Assembly (NCBI RefSeq): GCF_026151205.1 | Contig: NC_087077.1 | Coordinates: forward strand, 558,001 to 622,000 | DNA length: 64,000 bases | Source of the DNA: Bolinopsis microptera | Lineage: Eukaryota; Ctenophora; Tentaculata; Lobata; Bolinopsidae | Direction of reading: 5' to 3' | Shown here: piece by piece, positions 11,365 to 59,522 of the stretch | Layout: each line of letters opens with the position of its first letter | How positions within the stretch are numbered: the first letter of the stretch is position 1 | Notes under the pieces: model-generated | The model's database searches: none | What the model was told of the DNA's origin: nothing | Seen by the model: the letters and a program-made list of their open reading frames with translations, nothing else | Position numbers and translations under genes: made by a program

Positions 11365-14300
11365 TCATGTTTCAGTTTGAGTGAACGCACTTCTCACTGC
11401 TTCCGCGTCAAAATTTACCAGGCGCGTTCCGATAAGGTATCTGTGGAAGGTGTTGCCTGGTTATTTTCTGAATAAAATTGCTAGTATACAGTTACAATCC
11501 TGTACTATAATTTCATCCTTTTTTATTTAGTTCGACGTATCAGACATAAGTACTTACTTTTCGTTTTTGATTTTGATGTAAAGACGTTTAAACTGTTTTA
11601 GTTGCAGTTTTAGAAGGATAACTCCGAGAAGTACGACTACAGTTCCAGGGTAAATTCGTCTGTGACAAACGTGGGAGAAGTCGTCTGAGAAACCGAGGAA
11701 AGGGAGAGAGGAGCAGAGAGTGTAAGGAATACAAAGAAGATGAAGTTGGGTGACAACAACAGGAAGCACCAACTTAGTGGTCACAAACCATACGTCCATC
11801 TGCATTACTCCCGCTTGAAACACCTGGTAAAATAGAAGTGTAAACATTGGTAAAATAGAAGTTACAAAGAAATGAAACACATCTTTTAGCTGACAAGAAC
11901 ATTAAAAATATTTAAGATGAAAGTGAAAGTGAATCACCTGCTCAAGAACACGTTTAAAGTGCCAGTCTGGTCCAGTAAGAGTTCCAGCATAAAGTATCTT
12001 CACAAACAATACCCCTAAACCCCAGTCCTGCAAGAATGGAAATTGTAATTTTACAATAACTATTCTAATGAGTAGTGACCTCGTATACTGGTGACCTCAA
12101 TTGACGGTAACTTGTGAATAGGATAAAGTCAATAATATATAATGATACTGATATAATATGTAATATAAGTGATTTACGAGAATCCAAATATTTGGTAAAT
12201 TATAAACAAAAGAGTGTACTGACTTGCCACAAGAGATGTACAGGTGTGTGGTGAAGGGGAACTCTGATGGGGAGGAGTAAAATCATCTCATACAACAAAC
12301 CAAACAAGACCGGGATCAGACCGAACACTGTCAGTGCAAAGTAGATACACTTTATCATTATCAGCGACCACTCCTTCATCTGAAATAAACAGAAATGTAG
12401 TACGATCCTTCAAAAAGATAACGTTCAAAATATAAAGGAAAAGGAAAGGAGACAATTTTAAGAGTTTCATAACACACAAAATTAGACCCCAACCTTTTGG
12501 AAGAAGAGAGAAAGGCCCTGGACAGCCCAGTTGTACAGCAGGGTAGAGAGCCTAGTAGCTGCCCACAGCGTGTAGAGTCCACATGCGAAGGTGTAAAGTT
12601 CGTGAAGCTGTCCGGACGGCATGAATAGTTGCAGTATCCACCGTCCTGAAAGTGAAATATGTTATCAAATTCGAATTAAACGACTAATTGAAATGAGGTA
12701 TTTACATCGCGCTCACTTGATTAATCGACACAAGGAAAGTAGTTAACCGCGTCAGAGCGGGTGACTGAGTGATGTGAGGAAAAATGTCACAAAAAATGTT
12801 GATTGTTGGTGAATGGTGACTTCATTGAAATACTAAGAAAGTGAAACTAACCAAGTGAAACAGGTACGGAAAATATAAAGACTAAGAAAGTGAAACTAAC
12901 CAAGTGAAACAGGTACGGAGAATATAAATACTAAGAAAGTGAAACTAACCAAGTGAAACTACCCAAGTGAAACTAACCAAGTGAAACAGGTACGGAGAAT
13001 ATAAATACTAAGAAAGTGAAACTAACCAAGTGAAACTAACCAAGTGAAACTAACCAAGTGAAACAGGTACGGAGAATATAAATACTAAGAAAGTGAAACT
13101 AACCAAGTGAAACAGGTACGGAGAATATAGAGACTAAGAAAGTGAAACTAACCAAGTGAAACAGGTACGGAGAATATAAATACTAAGAAAGTGAAACTAA
13201 CCAAGTGAAACAGGTACGGAGAATATAAAGACTAAGAAAGTGAAACTAACCAAGTGAAACAGGTACGGAGAATATAAAGACGAGGAAAGTGAAACTAACC
13301 AAGTGAAACTAACCAAGTGAAACTACTAAGAAAGTGAAACTAACCAAGTGAAACAGGTACGGAGAATATAAAGACTAAGAAAGTGAAACTAACCAAGTGA
13401 AACAGGTACGGAGAATATAAATACTAAGAAAGTGAAACTAACCAAGTGAAACTAACCAAGTGAAACTAACCAAGTGAAACAGGTACGGAGAATATAAATA
13501 CTAAGAAAGTGAAACTAACCAAGTGAAACAGGTACGGAGAATATAAAGACTAAGAAAGTGAAACTAACCAAGTGAAACAGGTACGGAGAATATAAAGACG
13601 AAGAGAAGGAACATGCTGATACACGTGACCCCCACTAAAGTGGCCACTCTCCGTTTGAACTGATTGGGTCGGTAGTAGGGCTGGAAGGGCACGAAGAGTT
13701 CAGCGTTGGGGCCCGTTTGAGCTGCTCCCATACCTAACCCTTCAATATTGTTACTGTATCCTGGTACCCCTGAAATCATAGTAAACCAGGTGAACCATAT
13801 CAATTACAAATCATCTAGATCAATACAGTTTGCTTATTAAACGAAACCTTAATCACAGGACTGTCCAAGAATAAGACGGAGTTAAAGAGATATTTACCAA
13901 TGTTAACAAGTTTGCCATCGCTGCTCTCCTCTCCCTGATTTGGCACATCTCCAAGAAGGTAAGATCTGATACCCAGTAACCTGGCAACCCCGATAGCCCA
14001 GACTCGCAGGGAGTTCTTGAACCATTGTCGGGAGTTGCTCTGTTCGAGTAGCTGGGGTAACACCACCTGCAACAGTGCACTTCGTTAATCATCATTTCAA
14101 ATAGGGGGGCGGGGGTTGTGGTGGAACCAAGCCATTTCTAATAACCATGACATAATGTAGTTTTTCGATCGCAGAGAAAATATTGAAATATTGCTCGAAA
14201 AGAAGTGCCACGTAAAATACACATTACTTGTAAGAGTAGAAGTTCGAGACTAATCTCTCCCAGGATGCTCTCAGTGCTCATTTCCACACTGTAGGGTATA

Positions 14301-17300
14301 ACCCCGGGTAACAGGAAACCTATACAAGTCAGCGGGGCCCACACGATAAGCAGGATGCTCACTCCGAATACCACGCAGCTGATAGCGAACCGGCGTACGT
14401 GCTTCATAACACTGTATGTTATCATCTCTTGTATCTGGGGAGAAGTCAGTTAACTTGAAAAATATATATTCGTTACTTCTGAATCTAAAAAATATCGCGG
14501 TTTGTATGTGCAAATTTAATCAGAAAATCAACAGTTTCAGATGTACTGACCGGGTGGAAGTCAGGATCGTTCAGGTTCTTGAGAAACCAGAGAACTCCAG
14601 GCCTCATGACTTGTCGGAGGAGAAGAACAAAGGAAGCGAAGTAGAACACAAACACCATCCCCACCTGAGCAGAACTCAATGATAATGAAAGTGAAACTGA
14701 AAGTCATTAATGCTAATATGAAGAAGTGAAAAGAGATATTTACATCATGGGAACACAAGAGGTTGGAGAGGGTCATTACCAGCCAGTGGAGGAAAGTGGT
14801 AGTTCCAGGGGCCGTATAGAGGTAGTTAATCCTGTCGGCTAGTGTACTGTCACACAACTTCAGAGAACATATGTCAATCCACCAGCCACTCAGTGTCGGA
14901 AATATCGCTACCTCTAGTGCCAGGAGTAAAGCTACTTTGACGATTATAAAGCCGATGCCCAAAACGTGTTCAACCCTGGTCCAGTTGAAAAACCGGGCTA
15001 CAGTGTGTCCATATCCCATCAGGAGGAATACTACCATGTACCTGTGAATAAGTCTGAATTATGTAACTATCTCCGAGATAGTATCTCGTCATTTGAAAAA
15101 CTTGTTGGAAATGTTCAAATTTTAGTGAGTTAGAAGCCCGATGATTTGGATGACGACAACAGGAAAATAAGGTTACGAATAAAATATTATGACACACCCA
15201 ATTAGAAGAATAGCACCTCTCCCAACTAACACAACTTCCAAATCTTTGTCCACTCCTGCTGCCATGGCTACAACAGTGCCCAGTAGATAGGGTATCAAAC
15301 CAAAGAGGGTGATGGACACGACATTGAGGGTGGCTACCCAAAATACGTATTCTATGAAGACCAACGAACCGTCCATTCCTAGCATTCTTTCCCATGTTAA
15401 TTCTTCTGCTGCCCGGTCGATCTGAAATGTTGGATATTCAAATTGGTAATGAGTGGAACATCTCGTAAATATTCAAATATAAGTGCTTTAACATCAAGTT
15501 CCCCAATTCTTACAATATTAGGTCCGATAATGTCATCATTGTTCTGGTTCAATATAGGATGAACTCGGGCTAGTTGCTGGCCTGCCTGCGCAGGATCATC
15601 GTCCCAATCCAACTGTCGAACCACGTTGTCATCATTATCTTCAATTCCGCTGTCATCGGTTCTGTCGTCAACTACCTAATTACAAGATACTTCAGTTCAT
15701 TTGAACCATAAATACAGCAAGATAGTTCTTATCATCAGCAAGGAAAATAGTATGTACCGACTACCAAAGTATAAAATACTACAATTATTACTACGATTAT
15801 TACTAAAAGAAAGATCCTGGTAGCCTGTTTAATACTACTTTTCTCACCTCTAAAGGAGGATCCTCCTGAATATTCTCTAACCAGTCAGGACCTCCACCGT
15901 TAACAATCTGATCTCTCAACCATACCAGTGATAATATCACACAGAAACTTATCAACACTATTATACTCCCTTTGAAACAGTCCGCGAGTATTGTTTCGAG
16001 TGGGTCGTACGGTAATGAGATAAACGCTGAAATCATTAATGGGGTGAACAATTTGAAAATTCATCGACTTTGCTGTGTTGAAGTGTCGAAAAGTTTAATC
16101 TTTATTTCCATAAGTTTTAACCAACATTTTAGTGATACAAAAAAACGTAACGTTTGTAACTTACGCGCTATTGAACCACTAAACAGACATTTGTAAGTTC
16201 TGAACGATACGAGAGGGACGAAGGCGAGCCAGCATAAAGCGACTAGGGAGTAATGTAACCACAGCTTGATAGCGTGAAGGAAGGTAGTTATGATCCCGCT
16301 AAATAGGGCACTCACTGGTAACCAGCTAGGCATCGAAGCTGCGTATATAGGCTGAAATATAGAGTACAATTTTAGTTCACAACACAAATCGGGATTGAAG
16401 CTGCGTATATAGGCTGAAATATAGATTACAACTTTAGTTCACGACACAAATTGGGATCAGCTTTTGGAAAAATAATCTATGATGTGTATTTGTAGGATTA
16501 AGAAATTCAAATTATTTGAGACATACCTGAAACTTGATTGGGTGTTTGCATAATTCGCAAAATTCCTTCTTGCTGTGCCTCATCCACTGCATAAGGCACT
16601 CTTGGTGTATGTAACGAATACTGCCAATACATTTGCAGGGATGGAACAACGGTCGACCTGAGGTCAGAGTCAGTCGGGAGAGTGTATTAATTAACCATTG
16701 TATTCTTAATTCTACAGAATAACGCACGACCCTATATATAGAAGTTAAAGTATCATGTATAGTTAAAGAAAGAGTTAAAATCGACTCCATCTGCAGTTTC
16801 GAACACTCTAATTCCTTTCGGCAGATCATTGTTGACCAAAGTGGTCGACAACCAATACTACAGGGTACACTATTACATTATGTCATCATTATCGTATTAC
16901 ACAATTACGGATTAATGAAATCCACAATGTCGTTATAAAATTCGGTCGTGCGCGCTACGCTTACAACTGAAAAAGTACACCGAATATGGAAAATCAGTAG
17001 ACCCTTTTAACGGATATATATCCTTGTGTTTCAAGAAGAACAGGCGACTTTGGCTTAGATCGATAAAGCGAATGAAATGCTTAGTAAATGGCTCCGTAGC
17101 AGAATTTGTTTGAGAATTCTTCGAAAATGGAAACTGAACAGTTGCTGGCAGTCAAAAATGCTGGCAGTCAAAATTGTGCAAAACCCGAAATAATAACATT
17201 CACTGACTCACATAGCATTTCTAGAATCACATTTCTTCATTTAACACACAAATAACTACCTGGCGATCCACCGGATCTACAAAATCTACAGATATCGCTG

Positions 17301-17368: not shown

Positions 17369-17811
17369 CTTTACATAACTCGTCACATAGCTAGCTAGAT
17401 AGTGATAGTCGTTATAGCATAGATTATAAACGGCTCAAACGTAATGTTTTGAAGAGAGTGCTGTTCTTGCGTTCAGAAATTGGATTCAGCGATTCAATTT
17501 TGGCAAGATTTACTTGACTGAAGCTATCGATTACATCAGGGTGGTAAATTAACATTTCAAACTTATCAAGGCTACCAGCAGATAACAAACAGTTAAAAAA
17601 ATTCTAACTGTAACATTCACGACAAAACGACAAATATAACGCGTAAATGTACCATGCCCATTTCTGAATGAAGGCACTTATTTCTTAACAACGAATAAAT
17701 TAACGATCATTACGAAACACTCTCTACTTGAGTTTACAAATTGTCTACGCTTGATAATTTCAATAGAGAAATTAAAAATGTTCTAAAAGTTTCTAATCAG
17801 ATAAACGTTTC
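17369..17811. other. Short spacer between APEH stop and MARCHF6 start
   Basis: 443 bases that must hold the APEH 3' end and the MARCHF6 promoter or 5' UTR. I see no TATA-type element or coding sequence. Such a short head-to-tail spacing would also fit co-transcription followed by trans-splicing, but nothing in the sequence proves it. Confidence 0.4.
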
Positions 17812-24730: not shown

Positions 24731-27700
24731 CTAATCTGGCCAGACTGTATCGGCAGCCCAGAGGTACTTGATCAGTTTGGCCTTAAAAGTAGAAATACGC
24801 TCTGACTGCCGGATACATACTGGTAGACTATTCCATTTCAGCATAGATCTATGAAAAAAGCTATTTCGGAAGGCATCCGAGCAGGGCACAGTGGTACTCA
24901 TGTAAGTTGAAGTATCCGACATATCAATTATTTGAGCATTGTGCCTAGTGTATCGGGTGCCCTCTGGACGGCATAGGACTATATATGTAGGGAGCGAAAC
25001 TGGAATTATGCTATTCACTATTTTATAGAAGGTCATAAGATCGTTATAAATAAACTTCTGTTTAACAGGGAGAATATTTAGTTTCTTTTGCTCTGTAGCA
25101 AGTTTATCGTCATTATAACTGGAGTAAGGTTCACCATTGATCCATTTAATAGCCCTCTTTTGGATAGCAACAAACTGTTGAAGATGAGTTGCAGATTGAG
25201 GGGACCATATGACAGAACAATGTTCAAATATAGACCTAATTAACGCTAAATAGAACGATCTTTTCTGCCTTTTATCAGTAGTGAAATGACATGTTCTCTT
25301 AAGTAGTCCAAGTCTAGACGTAGCTTTGGAAACAAGCGCTTTACATTGTGCACCCCAATTAAACCTGGAGTTTATTGCGACTCCTAAATCTGACTGAGAG
25401 GGCACAAAGTCAATATCACTTCCAGAAAGTTTATAAAAGAAGGTATTGAATGGCAAGTTATCCAGCACGTTTCTTTGCAGGGACACAGAGAGGGCGTTGC
25501 ACTTTTGTGGGTGGAACTTCATTCGATTTCTCACTGACCAATCATATAATCTATTGATGTCATTTTGGATTATGTGATGGTCAGGGTAACCAAGAATCTC
25601 CCTCCAAATTTTAGTGTCATCTGCATAAAGGGCGATATTGGTGCCTTCAGAGACACAGGAGAACATGTCATTTATAAATATTACAAACAATAAAGGGCCA
25701 AGTATAGAACCTTGAGGGACACCAGACCGAACTGGTAGAGAAGAAGACGTTTGGCCTCCTATCACTACTTGTTGTTGTCGCCCCTCAAGATAGGACTTAA
25801 TAAATTTAAGCATTAGTCCATCGACATTAAAAATATTCTTTAATTTACTTAAAATGAGGTCATGCGAAACGCTATCAAAGGCTTTCGCAAAATCAAAATA
25901 TATTATATCAGTCCTGGACCTGTTATTCAATGCAAGTGCAAGATTGTCCGTGAAAGGTATCATTTGGGTTGTGCATGAACGTTCATTAACAAAACCGTGT
26001 TGTCGGTCATCCAACAGATCAGAACACGCAGCGTATAATGCAGTCTTTATGCACCTTTCAAAGACTTTCATTACAAGAGATGTTAACGAGATAGGCCTGT
26101 AGTTCTCAACCGAAGACTTATCGCCCTTTTTGTGCACTGGTACTACAAGTGCCAGCTTCCAATCAGGGGGTATGCATCCGCTCGAGAAAGACAGGTTAAA
26201 TAAAACACTAAGTGGGTATGCAAGGCTTTGGGCACAGTTTTTGAGGACTCTCCCATGAATCCCATCAGGGCCAGGGGCCTTGTTAGGATTTAACTTTTTA
26301 AGAATCAACAGAACATCTTCTCTACTAAACACAAGACTTGGAAAACAATCATCACGAAAATCTATGTCAATGCCATAATCGCTCTCTTGAGAAAACTGCT
26401 CATAAAAATATTCGTTAAAAAGGGCAGCTTGATCAGATGGATTGTTTCGAAAGCGATTATGATATTTGACAGTTTCAGGGATCCTGGTTGACTTTGATTT
26501 AGATTTAACGTAGGTCCAGAATTTCTTGGAGATAAGAGCATCATCGGAGTCATCCTCAACACTGAGTCTCATTCTTTCGTCCATCAAATTTTTAAATTTT
26601 GTGCGAAATGCACGAAACTTTTGTTTATGAGACTCAGAGTTGCTCCCCTTATGCCTTATTCTCCATTTCTCCTTATTTCGTAGGAGACGATCACATTCGG
26701 AGTCATACCATGGGGGCTGGAACTGAGACTTAATGGTCTTTTTAGGGATCCATCGGTCACAGGCTGCACCGAGAACTCCTCTGAATCGACTCCAGGCAAG
26801 ATAAGGATCATTACACTCAAATATACTATCCCAATCGATGCTAAATAACTCAGAATTCAGGCCCCTAAAATTACCTTTACTATAATTAAAGATCTTTCTT
26901 TTAGGCTGCTTAATATACTTGGTCTTAATATCAATGTCAAATGTGATACAAAAGTGGTCGGACATACACATTTCGTTTTGATCTAAAACTTTAACATTCT
27001 TAATAAGGTTTTGAATGTTAGTGAACACAAGATCTAAGGTGTTGCCTGACTTGTGAGTAGGGGAGCTAATAAGTTGTGTATGTCCGAGGTCATCAGTGAG
27101 AAAATTTACAAAGCTAGAATGTAGCTGGCAAGATGACTGACCATCTGGCCAGGAAATCGAAGCCAAATTAAAGTCACCTACCAGAATGTGCCTTTGCAAT
27201 TTTCTGGCAGATGCTAAAGTAACAAAATGTTTCTTGAAAGATTCAAAATTATCTAAGCCAAGCGTTCCTACTCTATAAAATGTTGATATACAAAAGTTTC
27301 TTCCACACTGAGTCTTAATTATGATGGATAATAATTCAGCTTGAACACTAACTTTAGAGAACTTTAGACTCGAGATATCAATGTCTGTTCTATGGGCAAT
27401 CAGAACACCACCACCGTTTTTTCTGAATTTCTTGGGCTGGGTTGCATCCACTGGATGCGATCTTAAGGATCGGTCAAGCCTAAATACTTTGTATTTGTCA
27501 GGGAGCACCTCATTACTGAGAATGGAATTTTTCAGCCATGTCTCGTTTAGAATAATGATGTGAGGCTTATGTTTGTAGATATAACCATGGAATTCATGTA
27601 TCTTGGTCATATTTAGTGGTGGTGTTCCTGATGCTAAATCGCGTGTATTTAGGAAACCATGGACATTATTGTAAACAACGGATAAATTTGGTCCAGGGTT

Positions 27701-28237: not shown

Positions 28238-28431
28238 TGAACTTTAAAGTATATTATTAACAGAATTGTGTCTCGCCGTTGTGTTTTGTCAGGTATTGTG
28301 CTATAATATGAAGTAACATACATTATGCTATCACTTCGTTTGAATACATATAAATAACATCCAAATGATCAGATCCAATAGGATACTGATGCAGACAATG
28401 AAAAATTGAAATATTGAATTGGATTACCACA

Positions 28432-29949: not shown

Positions 29950-30060
29950 CTTGTTGTGAAGTGTGGGAGGATCGGGAGGAGACTGGGTGATCCAGATAAG
30001 AGATCAACAGCAGGATGTTTCAGTGGCACCGTTATAAACCCTAGCAATCTGGATCTGAAA

Positions 30061-47600: not shown

Positions 47601-49465
47601 GTAACAGCCCTGTAACAGCACTGTAACAGCACTGTAACAGCACTGTAACAGCACTGTAACAGCACTGTAACAACACTGTAACAGCCCTGTAACAGCACTG
47701 TAACAGCACTGTAACAGCCCTATCCCCCAGTGCCTATGGAGTACCTGTCCCTATTCGCTGATGTGCCAGGACTCCGAGTCTGGTACGATGTCAGCACTGG
47801 ACTCTTCTACGCTGCTACTGCTGTGCTCTGGCTCCTATTTGTCGGGGAGCACAGAATGGTAGGGGTTAAACATTGTTATTTTTTATTAATCCTGTATTTT
47901 CTTATTTTTACACAGGATGGTAGGGGTTAAACATTGTTATCTTTTATTAATCCTGTATTTTCTTATTTTTACACAGGATGGTAGGGGTTAAACATTGTTA
48001 TCTTTTATTAATCCTGTATTTTCTTATTTTTACACAGGATGGTAGGGGTTAAACATTGTTATCTTTTATTAATCCTGTATTTTCTTATTTTTACACAGGA
48101 TGGTAGGGGTTAAACATTGTTATCTTTTATTAATCCTGTATTTTCTTATTTTGTCGGGGAGCACAGGATGGTAGGGGTTAAACATTGTTATTTTTTATTA
48201 ATGCTGTATTTTCTTATTTTTTGGTCGTGCTTCTTAAGGAATAAAAAATGCAGCCCATAGTTTCTTTTAGTAGGCACAAACTCGACACATATATTTGTTC
48301 ACTATCTAGTTAACGTAACCAACGTTACAATTTAATTGGACTGATTAGTAAATAGTTCCTCTCCTAGGATCTGGATCAAAGAAACAAATTCTCAAACTAT
48401 TGGAAAGAGATAACAGCAATCAGTGTGTGCGCGTCTGTCATGTTCTTATTCGATGTGATTGAGAGAGGACTACAAATAGCGGACCCTTTTCATTCGATCT
48501 GGTCCACTGTGATGGGGGAAAATACCGCCAGAACTCTACTGATAGTGTCAGCTGGGTGTGCTGGGTTTTACCTTCTCGTTCTTATCTATCTGATGATTAG
48601 AGCTGTAATCAGCATGAGCAGGAAAAGAGCGAGCTTGGTAGGTGGAGATTAAAATATGGAGAATATTCTCTTTTATACCGGAGCTTACTTACGGAATGTT
48701 CTGTGAAGTTTATCCTTTCGAATAAATGTCTAAACGAAGAGCAATTTTTCAATCCTGGAAATTTCTATGCGAATGGTTCACCAATTACTTGATTTAACTG
48801 TTAATTGATAACAGGTGAACGTTGGTCGAGTAAGACAGATGTACTACGAGGGGTTGATAACTAGGTTTAAAGTAATGGTCTACGGAACAGCAGCGTGTGG
48901 GATCCTAACAGTCGTCATGTTCATCATGATTAACCTCAATGAAATGTACTACAAGTGGGGCAGAACAGAGAAAACTATCGAGATTAGCAGTAAGTTTGTC
49001 ATTGTGGTTGCTATGGTAGCCAATACAAATGTAGTTGTCATGGTAACTAACATGGTCATGGTTAATTTCATGGTAACCTGTCATGGTAACTAACACAATT
49101 CCCTTTTTTTACAGGTGGTTTTTTAGTTGGTATTGCTGGTCTGTGGAATTTGTATGTTTTGAACATTCTTCTTCTGTACGCTCCAACATCATCCGCCTCA
49201 CAGGCTACAGGTTTTTACTGTTTATAGAATTATTTGGGTTATTTTGTCTTTTATCGCTTTAAATATTTAACTTTAAATTGCGAAACTACAGTAGTAGTTA
49301 TAGTTATTAAAAATATGGTTACAGCTAAGATGGTCACCAGTGGTTATATAATCAAGTTGCCTGTACCCATATTTTGCAGATGAGTACGAGACTGTGGAAA
49401 TGAGTGAGGTTAACCCTGGAGGTCCAGATGCACTCACTACACTCACCAAACCTAGTGCAGACTAG
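32629..49465 (+). CDS. WLS: Wntless (WLS/Evi/GPR177), complete, 12 exons
   Basis: Multipass carrier that escorts lipidated Wnt proteins from ER/Golgi to the cell surface. Exons: 32629-32734, 32888-33003, 33251-33413, 33682-33821, 34895-35029, 45463-45602, 46737-46777, 47731-47858, 48368-48637, 48815-48989, 49115-49210, 49380-49465. Every junction is GT-AG and in phase; 531 residues against 541 in human. Residues 14-33 are the first membrane helix; a lumenal domain follows (YTMSRWFQWMITVLQI), then the multi-helix region with IHQNGGFTKVWVAQK, FYAATAVLWLLFVGEH, FSNYWKEITAISVCA, FDVIERGLQIADPFHSIW, VRQMYYEGLITRFK and GIAGLWNLYVLNILLLYAP. The C-terminus is acidic and lacks an obvious vertebrate-like tail. 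Intron 5 is 10.4 kb and hosts a whole GPCR gene on the other strand. Donors of exons 4 and 8 are embedded in tandem arrays, and the stop-codon region is duplicated. Confidence 0.97.
32815..32838. repeat. Perfect 24-bp palindrome in WLS intron 1
   Basis: TCTGACTAGTG and its exact complement separated by AA. One of several perfect short hairpins in this window. Confidence 0.9.
33803..34733. repeat. Minisatellite (about 31-bp unit, about 30 copies) carrying the WLS exon 4 end and donor
   Basis: Unit: GTAGATAAGGAATATGAT then GTGAGT then AGAGGG(G/A). The first copy is the genuine last 18 coding bases of exon 4 (ending 33821) followed by its 5' splice site; the rest fills the intron. GAT before GTGAGT is kept in nearly all copies (one has GTCAGT, one GTGATT). 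Spacer length and bases vary (GGGG, GGGGG, GGAC). Confidence 0.97.
35376..35477 (+). CDS. Candidate cysteine-rich micropeptide (33 aa)
   Basis: ATG to TAA, 33 residues, of which 10 are Cys: MCCVDCGKACFRGIG at the start and KVVCCCICGGD at the end. It lies in WLS intron 5 on the same strand, 347 bases after exon 5. It contains no duplication of neighbouring sequence. I do not recognise the family; the spacing of single and tandem Cys could suit a palmitoylated or metal-binding peptide. A chance open frame is possible at this length, though the Cys content is far above chance for an AT-rich intron. Confidence 0.35.
   Translation: MCCVDCGKACFRGIGNCFKGMCKVVCCCICGGD
36440..37865 (-). CDS. Rhodopsin-like G-protein-coupled receptor nested in WLS intron 5 (3 exons)
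   Basis: Exons: 37865-37646, 37443-37314, 37025-36440; phase-consistent, 311 residues. Seven hydrophobic segments. TM1 has the conserved Asn (GSLLNIAVI), TM2 the Leu/Asp pair (LNMAVADLL), a Cys before TM3 (IVCRATP), a DRI version of the DRY box (ITVDRIIAVV), four Cys plus others in extracellular loop 2 (SSCCHFQRCDPPESC), a Pro-containing TM6 (LSWMPFF), and a TM7 with DPCLH in place of NPxxY. N-terminus is short with one Asn-glycosylation site (NVT). Ligand unknown; many invertebrate orphan receptors look like this. The exon 2 donor GTCAGG was chosen because only it keeps TM3-ICL2 in frame. It lies opposite in strand to its host gene. Confidence 0.87.
37111..37232. repeat. Three-copy 41-bp tandem repeat in GPCR intron 2
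   Basis: GTGAGAAATGGATTTGATTT repeats at 37111, 37152 and 37193, with AATCTGTAGTC between. It does not reach either exon. Confidence 0.93.
39403..41408. repeat. 2-kb minisatellite, 31-bp unit, about 65 copies, with higher-order structure
   Basis: Unit: ACACTGATAGTGGGTGGAGC plus AACAACATGT(A). Variants (GGTGAC, AGTAAC, AGTATAAGCAAC, TGAAAC, GACACAGATAG) recur in the same order: the AGTATAAGCAAC plus CACAGATAG pair is found near 39942 and again near 40673, 731 bp apart. All minus-strand long frames here are repeat artefacts. WLS intron 5, away from exons. Confidence 0.97.
41725..42388. repeat. Minisatellite, 32-bp unit, about 21 near-identical copies
   Basis: Unit: ACAAACCTGGCATCTCCAGT then AACCTGCATCTT. 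Only one internal substitution seen (AGTATCC near 42054), so the array is very homogeneous and probably young. Confidence 0.97.
42389..45462. other. Remainder of WLS intron 5
   Basis: AT-rich. It contains a two-copy duplication of about 63 bp at 43738-43858 (CGCCTCAAGGCTGTAGTGCA in both copies) and a short AAGCAACCATG/AAGTAACCATG triplet near 44750. I see no gene. Confidence 0.55.
46183..46547 (+). mobile_element. tRNA-derived SINE, about 365 bp with A tail
   Basis: Begins with a tRNA-like head: A box TAGTGGCTCAGTTGGTTAAT and B box GGTTCGATTCCC. A central domain contains CCACTCAGCCAAATAC and GTGTGAGGGTTAAATGAGG, shared with the minus-strand copy near 23000. The 3' end is an A run of 11 bases. 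It lies in WLS intron 6. I could not confirm a target duplication. Confidence 0.88.
47222..47719. repeat. 11-bp tandem array (about 45 copies) abutting the WLS exon 8 acceptor
   Basis: Unit CACTGTAACAG with CCCTGTAACAG variants and one inverted-base copy near 47338 (GTTACAG). It ends 11 bases before the exon that starts at 47731, so it replaces the region where branch point and pyrimidine tract should be; only CCCTATCCCCCAG remains. Confidence 0.96.
47855..48225. repeat. 61-bp tandem repeat (6 copies) containing the WLS exon 8 donor
   Basis: GATG followed by GTAGGGGTTAAACATTG recurs at exactly 61-bp steps from the genuine donor at 47859 (47920, 47981, 48042, 48103) plus a last copy. Each unit also ends with CTTATTTTTACACAG, an acceptor-like tract, directly before GATG. 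The last copy instead has TTGTCGGGGAGCACAG, which is exon 8 sequence, so a longer piece of exon was copied there. Confidence 0.95.
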
Positions 49466-49503
49466 ATGCACTCACTACACTCACCAAACCTAGTGCAGAC
49501 TAG
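49426..49503 (+). repeat. 38-bp duplication of the WLS C-terminal codons and stop
   Basis: AGATGCACTCACTACACTCA through GCAGACT occurs twice in tandem; the first copy encodes the last residues and the TAG at 49463, the second lies in the 3' UTR and repeats the TAG. Confidence 0.93.
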
Positions 49504-49939
49504 AGGAGATTTGAACTGCTCACTAGAGTTAGCGCAGACTAGTGGCCATTCTGGATTACTCACTAAACCTAGCGCTATATTTCTAGGTCAAGACTTACCT
49601 TTAGACATTCAATAGATTTATGTACAAAATCATTGCAGCGATCGAGCAGACTTAAATTTTTAAATACAGCTAGAATTTAATAGACAGATTTTATATGAAG
49701 CTTTTACATTTTTAGGTGCTCTTTCCTTAGTGATTGAGTAAGATTCCTTAAGTGATATGGGGAAAATTTCCGTTAAACCCATACTAGAGTCGAAGGGAAA
49801 GAATTCGATTGATATCGATTGAAGTTATGAAGTGAAGGAATTTGTCACCGAAACTTTTAGAAAATATTTCCCGGGAGTTAACGAATTTATGATTATATCG
49901 ACAAATACTTTTAATTATCAAATTTATCGAACAATGTTT

Positions 49940-49945
49940 AATAAA
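49940..49945 (+). terminator. Candidate WLS poly(A) signal
   Basis: AATAAA 475 bases after the WLS stop codon on the sense strand. Confidence 0.5.
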
Positions 49946-51111: not shown

Positions 51112-54100
51112 TCAGCAGGTCCCATCCCCATGAGGCATCCCAATTCTAGGACTGGCATGTTTGACGTCATTGAACAGTTTTGATCTACGACTCTTCATGT
51201 CATTATTGTAGGCCGGTCCCTCAAATTCAACAATATCTACTCCGTGTCTTTCACTCTCAACCTTTATTCTGAGTATCTGAAATTTTCATGTCATAAAAAA
51301 GAGTATTGAGTTTCATGTGAATGTGAATGTTATGAGTATAAGTCTTTAAAAAGTGACTCAGCACTGAAAACAAATTAATCAGTACATTTTGAGATAATAC
51401 TCAAGGTCAACACTTTAATTTTGGTTCAAGGTTTAAAGTTTGAGGTGTCCAGTTTTAAGTCTAAATTTTAAAACACTCTCTCTCTTTAAATTTGACTAAA
51501 GTGTTTAAAAGTTACAGAAAGGTAGTGCTACATACCTTGCATTGTCTGAGAATGAAGCAAGTGGGAGTAACGATAGCAGTAACGTAGATTATTGTCAGAA
51601 GTGTCAACAACACGTTACTACCTAGGTACTTCCATCCTTCACTGCATCCTGTGAATACACCACACGATTTGTACGCATACTTCAACCTTAGGGAAGATAT
51701 AACTCGTCAGATTAATTTATCTGGGAGACTTTTTTAGTGAGAGAAGTAAATACCACTTTTAAAAACTTTAACTTGAAAAAGTTTCTGAATGCTGTAACAT
51801 ACCCCTCGTCAGTGTTTAAGACTGTTTCAGCGAATAAAGGAGCACTGAGAGCACTCCAGACACCACATCCTAAGTGTACCGCCACAGCATCCACTACATC
51901 ATCAATCCTGAACCTCCTCATTAGCTTTGACACGACCATCACTATCACACCTCCCAGCGATCCTATCACAATGCCTGCATAATGCATATATGCATATATG
52001 AGTTTTATTCAAATGTTTAACAATTCTTGACAACAACAAAAAGTAAAAAAGCTTGTTTTACATTTATAATTTTTATCCTGACTGTCTAAGAAAAGTTTAA
52101 AAGTAAAAAAACAGTATAGAACATTGACAAGAGCTACAGCACTGACCAAAGTAGGGTTTGATGACAGAGCAGCCGCTAGTACTGCATACTAGTCCGGCTA
52201 AGATACCGTTACACAGGTCGCCCGGCTCCGGCAACTTCCTGCAGGTTTGGAATTTAGTTTATAAAGTTGATAAAGCTTATACAGTGGAGCTGATTTTAGA
52301 TTTCTATTCAGAGCAGTTTTGAAACTCAATCAAAATAAAGTTTCAGTGACATGATGAGAAGATTACAAACTTTCTGAGGCCAACGGACAGGGCGAGGTAA
52401 GTAGCCCCACTAGAAGCTGCGCAGATTGTTGTGTAAGCTGCTATATTTCCCATTAGAGATTCGTTACTTGCCGCTGTAAATATAATGTGATCGCTTTAGA
52501 ATATAATATTAGAAGTAATTATAAGAAAATAGTTATCAGGGAACCACAAATTATAAACATGCCTGTCCTCGTAGTAATAGTAAGTGGTGATCACAAGTAC
52601 TGCGCCAGTATGAATTATAACTCTTCCTCACGATACATCGAGCAAGCAATTAATATTGAGAAATATAACCGATCATTCTAAGTAAAGAAACTGACCGGCT
52701 AAGATAGCAGGTCCAGCGTTGAAGGCGTACCAACTAAACCACAGAACGAACATACCGAACACGATGAACGATTGGTTTTGTTTCGGCAAATCTTTCCTGG
52801 AATGTTGTGGGGATCAATAAATGTGATATAAAATTCCACAAAAATATCGAATATAAGAACAAAAACGAAACTTGAAGACTACAAAATAAAAATAAATTGT
52901 ATTACAACAAATATTTAACCGCCTATTCTTGTTAGTTAACTGAGTTTCTATTAAATCCCCTTGTCTCATTTATTGAATTATTTATCTATTGAGACATTCT
53001 TAATGATGATTTTAAATGCGGCCCAACCCCTTTATATTACAACTTATGATATATCATAAGTCGTACTATAAAGATATATATACACCCCATGGCCCATATA
53101 TATATATATCATCTCTCCAAAATTCCAAATGTTACAATCATTGAATTGCCTGCTTAATGGACAATAGGTAAGCTATGGATTTAATGATATACCAAAGATA
53201 ATCGTTTGGAAGAGAGGTAAGGATCGACGCCGAGCTCAGCTTCAAAAAGTGAATATTCATAAAGTATAACAGACTAACAGAGCACTTGTTCTATAAAATG
53301 GCACATTTTCCTTTCATCTATATCTTGTTAACCAGACTATATTCTACAAGATCTTTAGCCCTACATTATTTGCCAGTGGCATGGTTTCCCAGAGGTTGCC
53401 ACACTACTCGGGGGATCGAGCAGCCCTATTGGTTACATTATAGCTGAACAAATTCTGGTTGGACTATAGTGTTGTCACGTGGGTTGACGGAGAACCAAGA
53501 GAACTCAAAGCAGTAGATAGAGGATATCTCAATAGGTTGCCGGTTTATGTGTGTAATACAGTAGAGAGCTGGGACTTGAGCTATCGTTCCATCATTCATG
53601 ATACACGAGGCGGCCTTCGTGGACTCTCACTCGGTCCTTAACATTTAACCAAATAATAATTCGTTTATTTTTTTAATTGGTTGGCACATCAATATCATGA
53701 TATGATACATAAATGTTCATGTACCAGGAATTATTGTTCTTACGATAACAAACTTTACATTTTCTCTTTCACAGGAACATTTAGCAATGTTAATGTTTCT
53801 CTTTGTTTCTTTTAGCTTCGTCCCCTCACTACATACTGGTTAGTGGTACACATTTATCGTTATCTTTTCAATTCATTAGTTTTTACTGTCGATAACGTTC
53901 ACGGAAAAAAAAACGAAATCACGTCATGGTTCATAAACATGGGTTATGATAACTACATGCTCTAAAACGTTTCTTGGAATTCCTCGGATGCTGCATGAAC
54001 ATTTTATAGGTGCAAAATTTAAGCTCAATAGTCGAGTTTAGTCACTTAATAAGTTTAATTACTTATTACTGGACGAACCACCTCTGTTCTGATTTGCGCT

Positions 54101-57100
54101 GGTTAAACCTTATTTTGACATTTCAGCACTAAGGGAGAGACTAGTTGGTGAAATAATACCAGTCAGTGCTAAACAGTTCAAGACAAAGGAAAATAATGAA
54201 GATGAGTATGCCGCTATATTCTCGTTAGACTTGGACATGGAAACATCGTCTCATGCAGTATCAAAAGGTGTTGACGGCCGGCCCTGGTTTAAGTTAACCT
54301 TTGATCAAGTGCACTGCGTTGAACAAGTGATTAGGTATCCTCTTAAAATAAGTGGTTATACCCTGACCTGGACCTGCTCTGAAACAGAATGCATCTGCTC
54401 AGGTCACAACTACTGTAACAGGTACAACCTCACAGTGTTTACAGAATCTTCTAATGATCTCCATTCAGTATCTAACTGCAAATACGGGGACAGGTTGAAG
54501 ATAGTGAAAATTAGTGGCACCCGTGAGCTGAGCGTGCCTGAGATATCAGTTATCGGGAAAAAAGGTAAGATATTGTTACTTCTAGTAACAATACTACTAG
54601 TTCGTCGTGTTCAGATCAATAAATTAAACCGAGATGACTGTTTACTACAGTTTTTTTCTCCAGACTACAGAATTATAAAACCCCCCATTTCAGTTGATCA
54701 CTCTCCTAAATGTGTCATTCTCAACTCAACATGGAGGAATGTTGTGACGTCACCACAACTACCAGTTGAACAAGGTACAGTGATATCCTTCACTTGTGAT
54801 TTAAACTACGCCAACCATGGAGGAGACGGAGCAACTTGTCAGGAAGGAGTTATCGTCCAAATAGACACGCCTCCTGATTGTCGTGGTGAGTGGGACTATA
54901 AATTTCAAATTTAAGTTGTAAAATTCTTGCTTCAAAATGGGTTTAATTTTGGATTTAAAACGTTTTAGAACTACTCAGTAATGAGCAATTTTTTAATTGA
55001 ACAGTATTCGAGTGAACGGAACCGTTGTGAGGAGAGTAGCTACTTTTGTCATAACGAACGTATGATGATATAAATAATAGGTTTTCATTAACCTCTGGAT
55101 TATTTCAGTTGAAGTATCAAAATATGAAACCTCCAACTCAATATTGAAAGGTTCTGAAAAAGGTTCGTAATTTGTGTTTTGTTAGATCTCAAGAAATGCA
55201 GGAACTGTTTCTTCCTCACGATAGGGCTCGTAACAGTTGAAACAGTTTTTACATAATACTATAAACTAAAATTATTCGTTTCATGGTGAAATAAAGATAC
55301 ACGACATTATTAAGTTTCGCCAATATTTTTAACCATGAAGGAGTTTTTAAGATTTCAGAATGATACTTCACTGGAAAGGACCTGTTGAACGGGTAGCACG
55401 ATTAGTGCAGCTTTCAGAATCAACATTAAACATTAGTCATGTAGTGATGTAGTGAAATGTTGGGAGCGAAGATCAGACCAAATATCTTTGAAAGATATTT
55501 GGTAACTCAGATAACGCCACAGTATATGAATATCTCAGAATTAAATTAATTGCGTGATATTTCCTTATCAAACACTGGTAAACTACCAAAAATAAAATGG
55601 ACATTTTCAAATGAACCAAGACATCCACTCCTGTGATCTAATAAAATTTCACAGAAAGATCCACAGAACTTTGTAATGAAGTTTACTCACACAAAGTTTC
55701 CCTTCCTGTCAAGACGGTGTTGTCGAGGACCGACAAAGAAGCAAGCAACTATAGAACACATTCCTGCACAGGTGTGAACTGCAATACCTCCCGCATCGTC
55801 AAGAACTGGGGCTATCAAACTGTGGGGGACGTTTTATTAGTGCTGGACAGAATTTACAAATTATAACTGAGTTTCAGTTAGTATAGTGAAAAGTTCGAAA
55901 GTATTAAGTTATGTTTACAAAATAGTGCAGTTTTCAAGTCTCAATATTGTTAACTGTTCAACTTAAAGTTAATGAAAATACCCACCTATTGGGATTAAGA
56001 GCACTAGCCCAGCCAGTAGGACTCCAAATCCAGTGTGTGATAACAGGGTAGAGTAAAGTGGATCCTATGATAGAGTACACTCCGTACGCCACAAGTTGGG
56101 TCCTCTCCGCTATCGCACCAGCTACTATTGTAGCAGCTGTTGCACAATACGACCAATGGTACACCCAACCTATAATTAATTATACGTGAACTCATTTACT
56201 TTTTTAATAATGAAGCCAAAAGCGAAAGTGATAACTTCACAATGTGAAGATCAAAGCAATAACCAAACACCTGCTGTATTATAGTATATTATAGTACCTG
56301 CTGAAGAGTGGTGGATGTCAGAAGCGTTTTGGTTGGAGCTCAGAAAAAAGTTTGTTGATCCAATCAATCCTCCCGATGATGATCCGTCTCCAAATGCAAA
56401 TCCAAAACCTGGGTTTAGAATGCTTTATTCGTATACACTCTACATATAAAACGTGAATGTGATAAAATTTAAAAGCTAATATTATTAACAATCTGATTTC
56501 GCTCTTTTGAGTGGGTCAATCATATAATTGATGTTTTGGGACAAGTGAGAGTCTCCAGACTCTCCACTCAGTTTTAAAAACTGAGTGGAAACTCTCACTT
56601 GTCCCAAAACATCAATTACATTACATAATATCATTGAAACAAAATCAGTTTTTGCCATGAGACCACTTTAGCTGAACTAGCAGGAACCCGTCTAACCCTA
56701 AAGTGGTGTCAAGACTCAAGAGACTAAAATAATTATTACCTATTTAATTCGCGTTTTTGACACCACTTGGGGGTCAAAATTTTGGGCTCTAAAACTCCTA
56801 TTTCTTGGCCAATTTTTTATTTTTTCATGCTGATTTGAAGGCCATTAAAGCATTTGACCCAGTCAAAAAAGTTTCAGTTGTATATCTTTTACGGTTTTTG
56901 CGGAAAGTCGTGTTAAAGTTGATGCCATGGTGTCAGTAAAATGGCACGGAACCATATATATGTACATATATACATATATATATCGTCTCGCTTTATATAT
57001 AGTGAGATGACATCAGCTACATTGCACTTACCAACTGCAAAGTACATGATAGCTGATATGATCATATCTACCATGTTTTTCATCAGGATACTTTTAGTAA

Positions 57101-59522
57101 ACTGTACTCTCACTGACCCCACCTGAAATAGGGAGAGTTACCAGGTTACCAGGTTACCCACCTGAAATACAAGTAGTAGATATATAGTAACACCTGAAAT
57201 ACAGACCAATCATCTTTAAAGTGTGTTATATGATTGAACGCCCTAACTTAACCCCACCTGAAATACAGACCAATTATCTTTAAAGTGTGTTATATGATTG
57301 AACGCCCTAACTTAACCCCACCTGAAATACAGACCAATCATCTTTAAAGTGTGTTATATGATTGAACGCCCTAACTTAACCCCACCTGAAATACAGACCA
57401 ATCATCTTTAAAGTGTGTTATATGATTGAACGCCCTAACTTAACCCCACCTGAAATACAGACCAATCATCTTTAAAGTGTGTTATATGATTGAACGCCCT
57501 AACTTAACCCCACCTGAAATACAGACCAATCATCTTTAAAGTGTGTTATATGATTGAACGCCCTAACTTAACCCCACCTGAAATACAGACCAATCATCTT
57601 TAAAGTGTGTTATATGATTGAACGCCCTAACTTAACCCCACCTGAAATACAGACCAATCATCTTTAAAGTGTGTTATATGATTGAACGCCCTAACTTAAC
57701 CCCACCTGAAATACAGACCAATCATCTTTAAAGTGTGTTATATGATTGAACGCCCTAACTTAACCCCACCTGAAATACAGACCAATCATCTTTAAAGTGT
57801 GTTATATGATTGAACGCCCTAACTTAACCCCACCTGAAATACAGACCAATCATCTTTAAAGTGTGTTATATGATTGAACGCCCTAACTTAACCCCACCTG
57901 AAATACAGACCAATCATCTTTAAAGTGTGTTATATGATTGAACGCCCTAACTTAACCCCACCTGAAATACAGACCAATCATCTTTAAAGTGTGTTTTATA
58001 ATTGAACGCCCTAACTTAACCCCACCTGAAATACAGACCAATCATCTTTAAAGTGTGTTATATGATTGAACGCCCTAACTTAACCCCACCTGAAATACAG
58101 ACCAATCATCTTTAAAGTGTGTTATATGATTGAACGCCCTAACTTAACCCCACCTGAAATACAGACCAATCATCTTTAAAGTGTGTTATATAATTGAACG
58201 CCCTAACTTAACCCCACCTGAAATACAGACCAATCATCTTTAAAGTGTGTTATATGATTGAACGCCCTAACTTAACCCCATCTGAAATACAGACCAATCA
58301 TCTTTAAAGTGTGTTTTATAATTGAACGCCTTAACTTAAAGTTAAGCATGAGATTTCAAAAATCACAAAATAGTTACGTTGACCACCGTCTCAGAGTGTT
58401 TCTAGATCTAACTCAGGGTATCTAAAAACTACAAAATAGTAATTAGGCTGAGGAGTGAGGATGCTGCAAACTGTTCAAATTGTTTTAAAAATAAAGTATT
58501 TATATTGTATAAACTACTGACAGTATCCAATATATACCCCCTGAGTCAGTACTCACCTCTAAGAAAGTAAAGCCCAGCTGCATGAGTATCACAACACTAG
58601 CCCCCCCCCCCCACTCACCTCTAAGAAAGTAAAGCCCAGCTGCATGAGTATCACGACACAAGCCCCCCCCCCCCACCCCCACTCACCTCTAAGAAAGTAA
58701 AGTCCAGCTGCATGAGTATCACGACACTAGCCCCCCCCCCCACTCACCTCTAAGAAAGTAAAGCCCAGCTGCATGAGTATCACGACACTAGCCCCCCCCC
58801 ACTCACCTCTAAGAAAGTAAAGCCCAGCTGCATGAGTATCACAACACTAGCCCCCCCCCCCCCACTCACCTCTAAGAAAGTAAAGCCCAGCTGCATGAGT
58901 ATCACGACACAAGCCCCCCCCCCACCCCCACTCACCTCTAAGAAAGTAAAGTCCAGCTGCATGAGTATCACGACACTAGCCCCCCCCCCACTCACCTCTA
59001 AGAAAGTAAAGCCCAGCTGCATGAGTATCACGACACTAGCCCCCCCCCCCCCCACTCACCTCTAAGAAAGTAAAGCCCAGCTGCATGAGTATCACGACAC
59101 AAGCCCCCCCCCACCCCCACTCACCTCTAAGAAAGTAAAGTCCAGCTGCATGAGTGTCACGACACTAGCCCCCCCCCCCCACTCACCTCTAAGAAAGTAA
59201 AGCCCAGCTGTATGAGTATCACGACACTAGCCCCCCCCCCCACTCACCTCTAAGAAAGTAAAGCCCAGCTGCATGAGTATCACGACACTAGCCCCCCCCA
59301 CTCACCTCTAAGAAAGTAAAGTCCAGCTGCATGAGTATCACGACACTAGCCCCCCCCCCCCCCCCCCCCACTCACCTCTAAGAAAGTAAAGCCCAGCTGC
59401 ATGAGTATCACGACACTAGCAGCGCACACTAGCTGGTAATGTTTCAGATACAGTTCCTGTGACTGGACATGACTTTTCCACAACTTGAACTCCTCCATTT
59501 CCACGTAATTAGAATCCTTCAT
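51112..59522 (-). CDS. Amt-type ammonium transporter (complete, 11 exons)
   Basis: Membrane channel of the Amt/MEP/Rh family. Exons: 59522-59376, 57122-57032, 56408-56298, 56169-55986, 55819-55691, 52796-52696, 52473-52371, 52238-52147, 51974-51803, 51686-51536, 51276-51112; phases agree, 481 residues. Start is uncertain: an in-frame ATG 54 bases upstream (59576) would add 18 residues. Recognition: MQLGFTFLEVGSVR followed by KSILMKNMVD, then FGFAFGDGSS, CATAATIVAGAIAER, VITHWIWSPTGW, DDAGGIAVHTCAG, FVLWFSWYAFNAGP, and VAVHLGCGVWSALSAPLF. The conserved Asp and both pore histidines (AVH in the DDAGG segment; AVH in the VHLGCG segment) are present, which fits an active Amt rather than an Rh glycoprotein. 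Exon 1 donor and exon 2 acceptor are both embedded in large arrays. A plus-strand gene is nested in intron 5. Confidence 0.95.
53787..55170 (+). CDS. Secreted Sushi/CCP-domain protein nested in the transporter intron (4 exons)
   Basis: Exons: 53787-53838, 54127-54564, 54694-54885, 55109-55170; phase-consistent, 247 residues. It begins with a hydrophobic signal-like segment (MLMFLFVSFSFVPSL). Residues of exon 2 form a Cys-rich, discoidin-like domain: PWFKLTFDQVHCVEQVIRYP, TLTWTCSETECICS, NCKYGDRLKIVKI, ending in EISVIGKK. Exon 3 is bounded by phase-1 introns, as Sushi modules usually are, and has PKCVIL, GTVISFTCDLNY, ATCQEG and PPDC. The short last exon ends at TAA, and AATAAA at 55290 supports a 3' end inside the intron. 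A longer exon 2 ATG at 54231 is internal. Function unknown; extracellular recognition or adhesion is an inference. Exon 1 is the least certain part. Confidence 0.68.
55290..55295 (+). terminator. Candidate poly(A) signal of nested Sushi gene
   Basis: AATAAA 120 bases after the TAA of the nested plus-strand gene and before the next minus-strand transporter exon. Confidence 0.45.
56526..56617. repeat. Hairpin with internal insertion in transporter intron 2
   Basis: AATTGATGTTTTGGGACAAG and GTGAGAGT on the left pair exactly with the right arm; the inner stem TCCACTCAGT also pairs. The left arm alone has an extra CTCCAGACTC, so one arm gained or lost a 10-base piece. Confidence 0.88.
57121..58335. 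repeat. 64-bp minisatellite (18 copies) carrying the transporter exon 2 acceptor
   Basis: CACCTGAAATACAGACC starts at 57191 and recurs every 64 bp to 58279, 18 copies without a length change. Read on the minus strand every unit ends CTGTATTTCAG then GTGGGG, matching the genuine acceptor and first six coding bases of exon 2 (exon begins 57122). Degenerate copies lie between 57121 and 57190. Confidence 0.97.
58551..59425. repeat. Minisatellite (13 extra copies) carrying 45 bases of transporter exon 1 plus donor
   Basis: On the minus strand each unit holds GCTAGTGTCGTGATACTCAT, GCAGCTGGGCTTTACTTTCT and TAGAG, then GTGAGT, then a G run of 8-19 bases (some with a T break). This equals the final 45 coding bases of exon 1 (ending 59376), encoding the TM1 stretch VVILMQLGFTFLE, and the 5' splice site. 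Units vary from 56 to about 70 bp only because the G run varies; the coding part is almost invariant. Confidence 0.97.

What the first reader, a model, noticed from the sequence alone, without database searches (positions are those of the whole stretch)
12834..59425. Exon-edge minisatellites: arrays whose units contain the neighbouring exon end and its splice site
At least five arrays in three unrelated genes start exactly at an exon boundary, and the repeat unit includes coding bases plus the working GT or AG. Two further two-copy duplications show the same arrangement. Chance overlap is unlikely given how little of the window is exon edge. It suggests a genome-wide process, such as local duplication tolerated only when it regenerates the splice site, copying linked to splicing intermediates, or intron growth by splice-site reduplication.
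Basis: partly seen in the sequence, partly recalled or inferred. Interest (0 to 1): 0.9.

Follow-up and report, generated by a model that had tools for sequence, protein, structure and literature searches.

The report
Splice-edge minisatellites in a comb jelly
In this comb-jelly genome short stretches of DNA that include the end of an exon and its splice signal have been copied many times in a row; such arrays were already known in lancelets, and in the part sampled here they sit on exon edges about as often as random placement in short introns would put them there.

Summary
The arrays are real. In MARCH6, WNTLESS (WLS) and an ammonium transporter (AMT), minisatellite units carry coding bases plus the working splice site: three 5'-splice-site arrays (12828-13604, 47850-48221, 58551-59420), one 3'-splice-site array (57191-58339, ending 68 bp short of its exon) and one two-copy 3' duplication (16335-16457). 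No extra copy that I checked keeps an open frame. A 3,327-bp contig encoding MARCH6 matches my spliced model at 833 of 833 residues, so the exon-adjacent copy is used there. The contig length of an annotated AMT identifies the genome as the ctenophore Bolinopsis microptera.

The statistics do not support a splicing-linked process. In 354 kb with arrays collapsed to one copy, 10 of 38 multi-copy arrays touching an intron span a predicted junction, against 10.2 expected from random placement (introns: median 197 bp). The window alone looks enriched against uniform placement (4 vs 1.18, P 0.018). Arrays wholly inside exons all have periods divisible by 3 (10 of 10; 54 of 160 elsewhere). I read this as random local tandem duplication plus purifying selection. 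The same arrangement is known from amphioxus as "mirages". Unresolved: donor-like words are over-represented in arrays.

The parts
11555..16657 (-). MARCH6 (MARCHF6/TEB4-like E3 ligase) gene, 14 modelled exons; exons before the RING exon and after 11555 not modelled
   Evidence: Manual splicing gives one open frame of 833 aa; Pfam RINGv and MARCHF6_C; P0018 identical at 833 of 833 residues
12828..13604 (-). 5'-splice-site array: 49-bp basic unit (donor spacings of 14, 31 and 49 bp), 21 copies of TTTCACTTG|GTTAGT (one with GGTAGT), 36 coding nt of exon 13569-13769 in the array
   Evidence: extra copies give no open frame; unit matched only at this locus
16335..16457 (-). Two-copy 62-bp duplication of the 3' splice site of exon 16165-16351 (TATTTCAG|CCTATATACGCAGCTTC)
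   Evidence: junction KFQ|PIYAAS supported by DOA10 alignment and P0018
47731..49503 (+). WNTLESS (WLS) 3' exons flanking the array
   Evidence: Pfam WLS-like_TM; ungapped alignment to human WNTLESS structures across GEHRM|DLDQRN
47850..48221 (+). 5'-splice-site array in WLS, 61/68-bp unit, 6 copies of ATG|GTAGGG; four middle copies are 7 bp shorter and now resemble an acceptor (TTTTTACACAG)
   Evidence: unit matched only at this locus
49426..49504 (+). Two-copy 38-bp duplication of the CDS end including the stop codon; second copy falls in the 3' UTR
   Evidence: sequence; classed as exon edge
51112..59522 (-). Ammonium transporter gene (AMT); exon 1 59376-59522, exon 2 57032-57122
   Evidence: Pfam Ammonium_transp; NCBI 'ammonium transporter 2-like isoform X3 [Bolinopsis microptera]' on a 20,932,313-bp contig, the length of C6
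58551..59420 (-). 5'-splice-site array of AMT exon 1: 14 copies (58-70 bp apart) of CTTTACTTTCTTAGAG|GTGAGT plus a variable G-run; 45 coding nt in the array; the units carry the in-frame ATG of MQLGFTFLE
   Evidence: junction E|VGSVR supported
57191..58339 (-). 3'-splice-site array upstream of AMT exon 2: 64-bp unit, 18 acceptor copies (16 with the identical core TCTGTATTTCAG|GTGGGG); one further decayed acceptor (57161) lies between it and the real one at 57122
   Evidence: unit matched only at this locus

Best explanation
These are 'mirage' minisatellites. Local tandem duplications of about 15-190 bp arise at many places. Those inside an exon survive only if their length is a multiple of three. 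Those that cross an exon end survive at any length, because the exon-adjacent copy stays intact and all further copies become intron. Later slippage or unequal exchange expands some into arrays. Splicing uses the exon-adjacent copy, so the array is removed with the intron. The number on exon edges is what chance gives in a genome with short introns. Shown here: arrays, boundaries, frame consequences, period rule, match to chance in the sample, and MARCH6 splicing at the protein level. Inferred: the duplication mechanism, the later expansion, and how the spliceosome picks one of many identical sites.
For: Conditional placement test: 10 of 38 multi-copy arrays vs 10.2 expected; 12 of 65 arrays of period 15 bp or more vs 12.9; conditional result stable over five settings. 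Exon-internal periods divisible by 3 in 10 of 10, elsewhere 54 of 160 (two of the ten are the same unit in two places). One usable copy per array: 1 of 21, 1 of 14, 1 of 20, 1 of 6. MARCH6 protein from a 3,327-bp contig equals the model at 833 of 833 residues. Three array units tested matched only their own locus. A stop-codon edge duplication obeys the same logic.
Against: Donor-like motifs are commoner in multi-copy arrays than in random segments (15 vs 4.6 of 63, P 2.6e-5) or shuffled units (16 vs 8.8 of 64, P 0.007). Genome-wide, three spaced CAGGTAAGT give 447 hits against 0 for the word read backwards, GAGGTGAGT 581 against 128, although single CAGGTAAGT is only twice as common as its control (2,462 vs 1,212). 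Hits count copies; the first 100 of the 447 fall at 10 places. Array cover at donors has a mild hump (about 5-6% from -10 to +30, about 3% at +40 to +70, 6% at +80 to +90). Among the 13 edge arrays counted, donors outnumber acceptors 10 to 3 (7.3 expected each). Against uniform placement one of five settings gives 13 vs 7.6 (P 0.028). The edge counts rest on an ab initio gene finder without RNA-seq, trained on 354 kb, which missed the true edge at 16335 and counts two doubtful ones (W 33801; the 22-nt exon at B2 28103). The window plus one 40-kb block hold all 10 multi-copy edge arrays (4 and 6).
Confidence: 0.72

Rival explanations
1. Edge-biased origin: duplication is seeded at splice sites (above all 5' sites), for example by transcription- or splicing-linked nicks or R-loops, so arrays are over-produced at exon edges.
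For: Donor-word excess in arrays; donors 10 vs acceptors 3; mild hump of array cover at donors; strongest arrays (n>=4, score>=200) 10 of 46 vs 4.57 under uniform placement, P 0.011; window 4 vs 1.18.
Against: Conditional on touching the intron there is no clear excess, also for the strongest arrays (10 of 28 vs 8.26, P 0.28). Two-copy duplications, the youngest stage, show no excess (3 of 59 vs 3.4; donor motif 4 vs 2.8 of 55). Donor-like words at the lower threshold are as common antisense as sense (21 vs 19 of 53).
Confidence: 0.13
2. Intron gain or growth by splice-site reduplication (Rogers-type): the introns themselves were created or lengthened by these duplications.
For: The two arrays fill about 2.0 of the 2.25 kb of AMT intron 1 (coordinates). 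Four WLS middle copies have turned the exon-end sequence into an acceptor-like site scoring 9.0 bits. The amphioxus authors propose the same.
Against: Growth of existing introns is plain, but in the five window cases the other end of the intron is a different sequence; none supplies both ends of an intron. Intron positions in relatives could not be read.
Confidence: 0.06
3. The copies are used: alternative donor or acceptor choice within arrays makes regulated isoforms.
For: NCBI lists AMT 'isoform X3' whose protein starts at the ATG carried by the array units (MQLGFTFLE|VGSVR), as expected if one of copies 2-4, 6, 7, 11, 13 or 14 were used. A Mnemiopsis paralog has an annotated protein with six 11-residue repeats between PYY and GIIIG, absent from its sister protein.
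Against: No wrong copy keeps an open frame from the normal start. The MARCH6 contig uses the exon-adjacent copy. The isoforms are annotations whose transcripts I did not see.
Confidence: 0.06
4. A mobile or introner-like family inserted at exon edges, or an assembly artefact.
For: Arrays are common in the sample: 170 of score 50 or more in 354 kb. The B. microptera assembly was made with wtdbg v.2.4 (passage, PMC10232365), so copy numbers may be wrong (my inference).
Against: Units contain the local exon's own bases. Three units matched only their own locus in the whole assembly (the tool warns that it skips simple repeats and very common words). The units of the three genes differ.
Confidence: 0.03

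Closest known systems
Amphioxus 'mirage' minisatellites (Adh3, globins BflGb6 and BflGb9, TnC, PGBD5); PMC3087553 (abstract and passages seen) and PMC3902484 (passages seen)
   Same: Tandem units that span an exon-intron boundary; both 5' and 3' edges; units of about ten to 160 bp; AG/GT in many copies; normal splicing reported to persist; several unrelated genes.
   Different: Here in a ctenophore, up to 21 copies per window array, with a placement test against chance and the period-of-three contrast. Length polymorphism and somatic instability, reported in amphioxus, were not testable here.
Intron gain by tandem duplication of AGGT-containing exon segments (Rogers model; ATP2A1, potato RdRp); PMC4974935 (abstract and passages seen)
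   Same: Local tandem duplication that includes splice signals.
   Different: There the duplication makes a new intron; here one edge of an existing intron is re-copied.
Internal tandem repeats in human segmental-duplication genes, PMC2812944 (search listing and start of abstract only)
   Same: Tandem repeats altering gene structure.
   Different: Not read further; relation to splice edges not checked.

Membership tests
Mirage minisatellite | Tandem, minisatellite-like repeat array | tested here: met
   TRF: 6-21 copies of about 49-70 bp in the four multi-copy window arrays described
Mirage minisatellite | Unit spans an exon-intron boundary (exon bases plus GT or AG) | tested here: met
   MARCH6, WLS and AMT 5' arrays include 36, 9 and 45 coding nt; the AMT 3' array carries the motif but is displaced by 68 bp
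Mirage minisatellite | Normal mRNA splicing is kept | tested here: met
   MARCH6 only, at protein level: P0018, 833 of 833 residues. AMT and WLS rest on homology
Mirage minisatellite | Length polymorphism or somatic instability | not testable with these tools
   One assembly, no reads
Intron gain by tandem duplication | Duplicated segment supplies both splice sites of a new intron | tested here: not met
   The window arrays re-copy one edge of an intron whose other site is a different sequence; WLS middle copies carry acceptor-like and donor sites 4 nt apart but no intron is predicted from them
Intron gain by tandem duplication | Intron absent in relatives | not testable with these tools
   Only proteins of relatives were available
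Introner or mobile repeat | Related copies dispersed at other loci | tested here: not met
   Three of the four multi-copy window units searched; each matched only its own array, with the tool's caveat on common words. The AMT 5' unit was not searched

The most novel reading that the evidence does not exclude
5' splice sites are favoured seeds or favoured survivors of minisatellite growth in ctenophores. At the 5' edge the first-transcribed copy is the right one, at the 3' edge it is the wrong one, so splicing kinetics would shape which arrays persist. Up to 21 near-identical donors in one intron then form a natural experiment in which position alone decides splice-site choice, with occasional use of later copies giving truncated isoforms such as AMT X3.
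Probability: 0.15. Interest if true: 0.75.

Novelty: new member of a known kind. Interest (0 to 1): 0.45.

Why it matters
Splice-edge minisatellites have been described gene by gene in amphioxus; my searches of the held library that paired ctenophores with minisatellites or with tandem repeats and splice sites returned 2 and 3 papers, none on this subject by title. If the sampled density holds, a B. microptera genome carries several thousand of them (10 in 354 kb gives about 7,500, 95% 3,600-13,700; 6 in the 290 kb outside the window gives about 5,500, 2,000-11,900; rough, two of the ten are doubtful). That would turn a curiosity into a countable system for asking how the spliceosome chooses among many identical sites, and it supplies the null model (intron length, unit length, frame filter) that any claim of splicing-linked duplication must beat.

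Tried and rejected
Uniform-placement null as the main test: rejected because arrays cluster in intron-rich genes; reported beside the conditional null. Array classes (period 15 or more, 2.8 copies or more) were chosen after seeing the arrays; the other classes are.

Motif-only test: it shows a donor excess that exon edges alone do not fully explain. At the low threshold it is equal on both strands and partly carried by one related family of units in block B2 (ATG|GTAACT). Kept as unresolved.

Genome-wide word counts: hits count overlapping copies and there is one control word each; used as a pointer only. AAGGTAAGT did not complete.

Taxon by glutamate-receptor search: not completed; settled instead by P0023's contig length and by PMC11797021 Table 1 (265 Mb, 13 chromosomes, largest 26.2 Mb; passage). 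That table gives 346 scaffolds, the assembly held here 232 contigs.

The first array picking used a wrong score column (redone); the gene finder did not run (cause found, mended).

Full report
WHAT WAS GIVEN. The window is C6:558001-622000 of a 264.65-Mb assembly. A protein annotated by NCBI as 'ammonium transporter 2-like isoform X3 [Bolinopsis microptera]' lies on a contig of 20,932,313 bp, the length of C6. PMC11797021 Table 1 gives B. microptera 265 Mb, 13 chromosomes, largest 26.2 Mb (passage); our C1 is 26,206,493 bp. The table's 346 scaffolds differ from the 232 contigs held here. I take the genome to be this lobate ctenophore.

THE ARRAYS. TRF lists 48 rows in the window. I built the three genes by hand and by homology. 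MARCH6 (minus strand): 14 exons join into one open frame of 833 residues with RINGv and MARCHF6_C domains. The array 12828-13604 begins 36 nt inside exon 13569-13769 and holds 21 copies of TTTCACTTG|GTTAGT, 20 with an identical 20-nt core. At 16335-16457 the 3' site of the second modelled exon is doubled. WLS (plus strand): array 47850-48221 includes the last 9 nt of the exon ending at 47858; six donors; four middle copies are 7 bp shorter and now look like an acceptor (9.0 bits). AMT (minus strand): array 58551-59420 includes 45 nt of exon 1 and 14 identical donor cores, with G-runs of varying length between; array 57191-58339 carries 18 acceptors (16 with an identical 18-nt core) with an exon-start look-alike but ends 68 bp before exon 2, with one decayed acceptor between.

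ARE THE BOUNDARIES REAL. Alignments run without a gap across the junctions: human WNTLESS across GEHRM|DLDQRN, ammonium transporters across FLE|VGSVR (also proteins of two Mnemiopsis genes), DOA10 across KFQ|PIYAAS. For MARCH6, protein P0018 comes from a 3,327-bp contig (source label 'lgn', not explained by the tool; I take it to be an assembly of public reads, recalled) and matches my spliced model at 833 of 833 residues. The modelled exons span 5.1 kb of genome, so that contig must be spliced. Its protein joins the exon at the exon-adjacent donor. The junction at 12828 lies outside the Pfam and solved-structure matches, but the relatives P0019 and P0021 (63% and 42% identical) read through the same point...PVSIGRF and ...PVSLGRW.

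WHAT WRONG COPIES WOULD DO. No other copy gives an open frame: MARCH6 1 of 21 donors does, AMT 1 of 14 donors and, paired with the first donor, 1 of 20 acceptors, WLS 1 of 6. NCBI's AMT isoform X3 begins at the ATG that the AMT 5' units carry, which is what use of copies 2-4, 6, 7, 11, 13 or 14 would give; I have not seen that transcript. In Mnemiopsis, P0027 carries six 11-residue repeats between PYY and GIIIG that the sister protein P0025 lacks, which looks like a read-through of a similar array at a 5' site; this is inference from protein letters.

MORE THAN CHANCE? I sampled 354,459 bases: the window, five random 40-kb blocks of C1, three 20-kb blocks of C5, C8 and C10, and eight kinase loci. 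I collapsed 170 arrays to one copy each, then trained a small gene finder on the result (40 genes, 281 exons; 241 introns of median length 197 bp). Because prediction is made on one copy, extra copies cannot attract exon ends. Over all 170 arrays, 14 span a predicted junction against 11.2 expected for uniform placement (P 0.22). For the strongest class (period 15 or more, four copies or more, score 200 or more) it is 10 of 46 against 4.57 (P 0.011). But about half of the arrays lie in or beside introns, so the fair question is: given that a unit touches this intron, how often would it span an edge? Expected 12.9 of 65, observed 12; for multi-copy arrays 10.2 of 38, observed 10; for the strongest class 8.26 of 28, observed 10. 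Five settings of the finder give the same conditional picture; against uniform placement one of them reaches 13 vs 7.6 (P 0.028) for multi-copy arrays. Window alone: 4 vs 1.18 uniform (P 0.018), 4 vs 3.12 conditional; outside it 6 vs 5.85 and 6 vs 7.06. All 10 multi-copy edge arrays lie in the window (4, one of them the doubtful 33801) and in block B2 (6 of 25 arrays, one of them through a doubtful 22-nt exon); the seven other 20-40-kb blocks have none. With numbers this small a bias up to about 1.8-fold is not excluded.

COVER AROUND JUNCTIONS. In collapsed coordinates (arrays of period 15 or more) cover at donors is about 5-6% from 10 nt inside the exon to 30 nt into the intron, about 3% at +40 to +70 and 6% at +80 to +90; at acceptors 1.8% at the edge, rising to 12.5% at +90; 60 nt or more inside the exon it is under 1%. 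So the donor edge is covered about like intron interior, with at most a mild hump, and the acceptor edge less.

SIGNS OF A FILTER. Arrays wholly inside predicted exons: 10 of 10 have periods divisible by 3, against 54 of 160 elsewhere (Fisher P 3.6e-5); two of the ten are one unit in two places. Periods at exon edges are unconstrained (5 of 19). A 38-bp duplication at the WLS stop codon (49426-49504) leaves the first stop intact: the same logic at a different edge. In block B2 the same designs recur in other genes: 31 coding nt in a coiled-coil-like protein gene (5559-5849), 26 in a sushi-like domain gene (25396-26593), and 3'-site arrays at 26650, 28103/29924 and 33884 (gene names are my reading of the translations, no domain search was run on them).

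RESULTS AGAINST THE PLAIN READING. Multi-copy units hold donor-like motifs more often than random segments (15 vs 4.6 of 63) or shuffled units (16 vs 8.8 of 64), and acceptor-like ones more often than shuffled units at the lower threshold (17 vs 9.4), while the reversed matrices show no significant excess. For the 53 genic arrays, donors at 7.2 bits are 11 sense vs 5 antisense and acceptors at 6.5 bits 11 vs 3, which suggests roughly 14 genuine splice sites (an array may count twice), in line with the edge count. But donors are equal on the two strands at the lower threshold (19 vs 21) and nearly so at the highest (5 vs 4), which edges cannot explain. Genome-wide, triple CAGGTAAGT gives 447 hits vs 0 backwards, GAGGTGAGT 581 vs 128, TTTTTCAGG 31 vs 8, single CAGGTAAGT 2,462 vs 1,212. 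Hits are copies, not arrays; the first 100 of 447 fall at 10 places. Donors outnumber acceptors 10 to 3 at edges (7.3 expected each; multi-copy only 7 to 3, 5.1 each). A simple reason would be that at a 5' edge the first-transcribed copy is the right one, at a 3' edge the wrong one; this is inference.

COMPARISON WITH WHAT IS KNOWN. [quoted passage not shown] PMC3902484 (passages) adds PGBD5 and mentions TnC. The 2002 Adh paper was not held. The window's arrays meet the three mirage features I could test; instability could not be tested. I found no paper on such arrays in ctenophores in the held library (judged by titles and abstract starts), which is not proof that none exists.

VERDICT. A real and attractive structure, new for this phylum as far as I could search, but of a known kind and, in this sample, as frequent as random duplication plus purifying selection predicts.

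Noticed in passing
window 47905-48103 (+): Four middle copies of the WLS array have turned exon-end sequence into an acceptor-like site followed 4 nt later by a donor: a possible start of a new splice site.
   Followed up: partly
window 49426-49504 (+): Two-copy duplication spanning the WLS stop codon; the first copy keeps the stop.
   Followed up: partly
window 54093-54911 (+): A 273-aa open frame on the plus strand lies inside an intron of the minus-strand AMT gene (between exons near 52.8 kb and 55.7 kb); looks like a nested gene, no Pfam match.
   Followed up: no
window 24734-28243 (-) and 3394-4734 (-): Long reverse-transcriptase-like reading frames (Pfam RVT_1 checked for the second only).
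   Followed up: no
block B2: L013-L016 (C1:375363-415362), positions 28103-30201 of the joined block: A 26-bp 3'-splice-site array appears split in two by about 1.3 kb that includes an ORF which to my eye resembles a retroelement ORF1 (no domain search); both halves share the unit.
   Followed up: partly
L017-L018 (C1:1501059-1511593): A 10.5-kb array of a 29-bp unit, about 363 copies, with GTGAGT in the consensus unit.
   Followed up: no
P0027 versus P0025 (Mnemiopsis leidyi, ACHWQZ_G001363): Annotated protein variants differ by six 11-residue tandem repeats at one exon-junction-like point, suggesting a retained 33-bp mirage array in a public annotation.
   Followed up: partly
sample-wide and whole genome: Donor-like words are over-represented in minisatellites, on both strands at moderate scores; unexplained.
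   Followed up: partly
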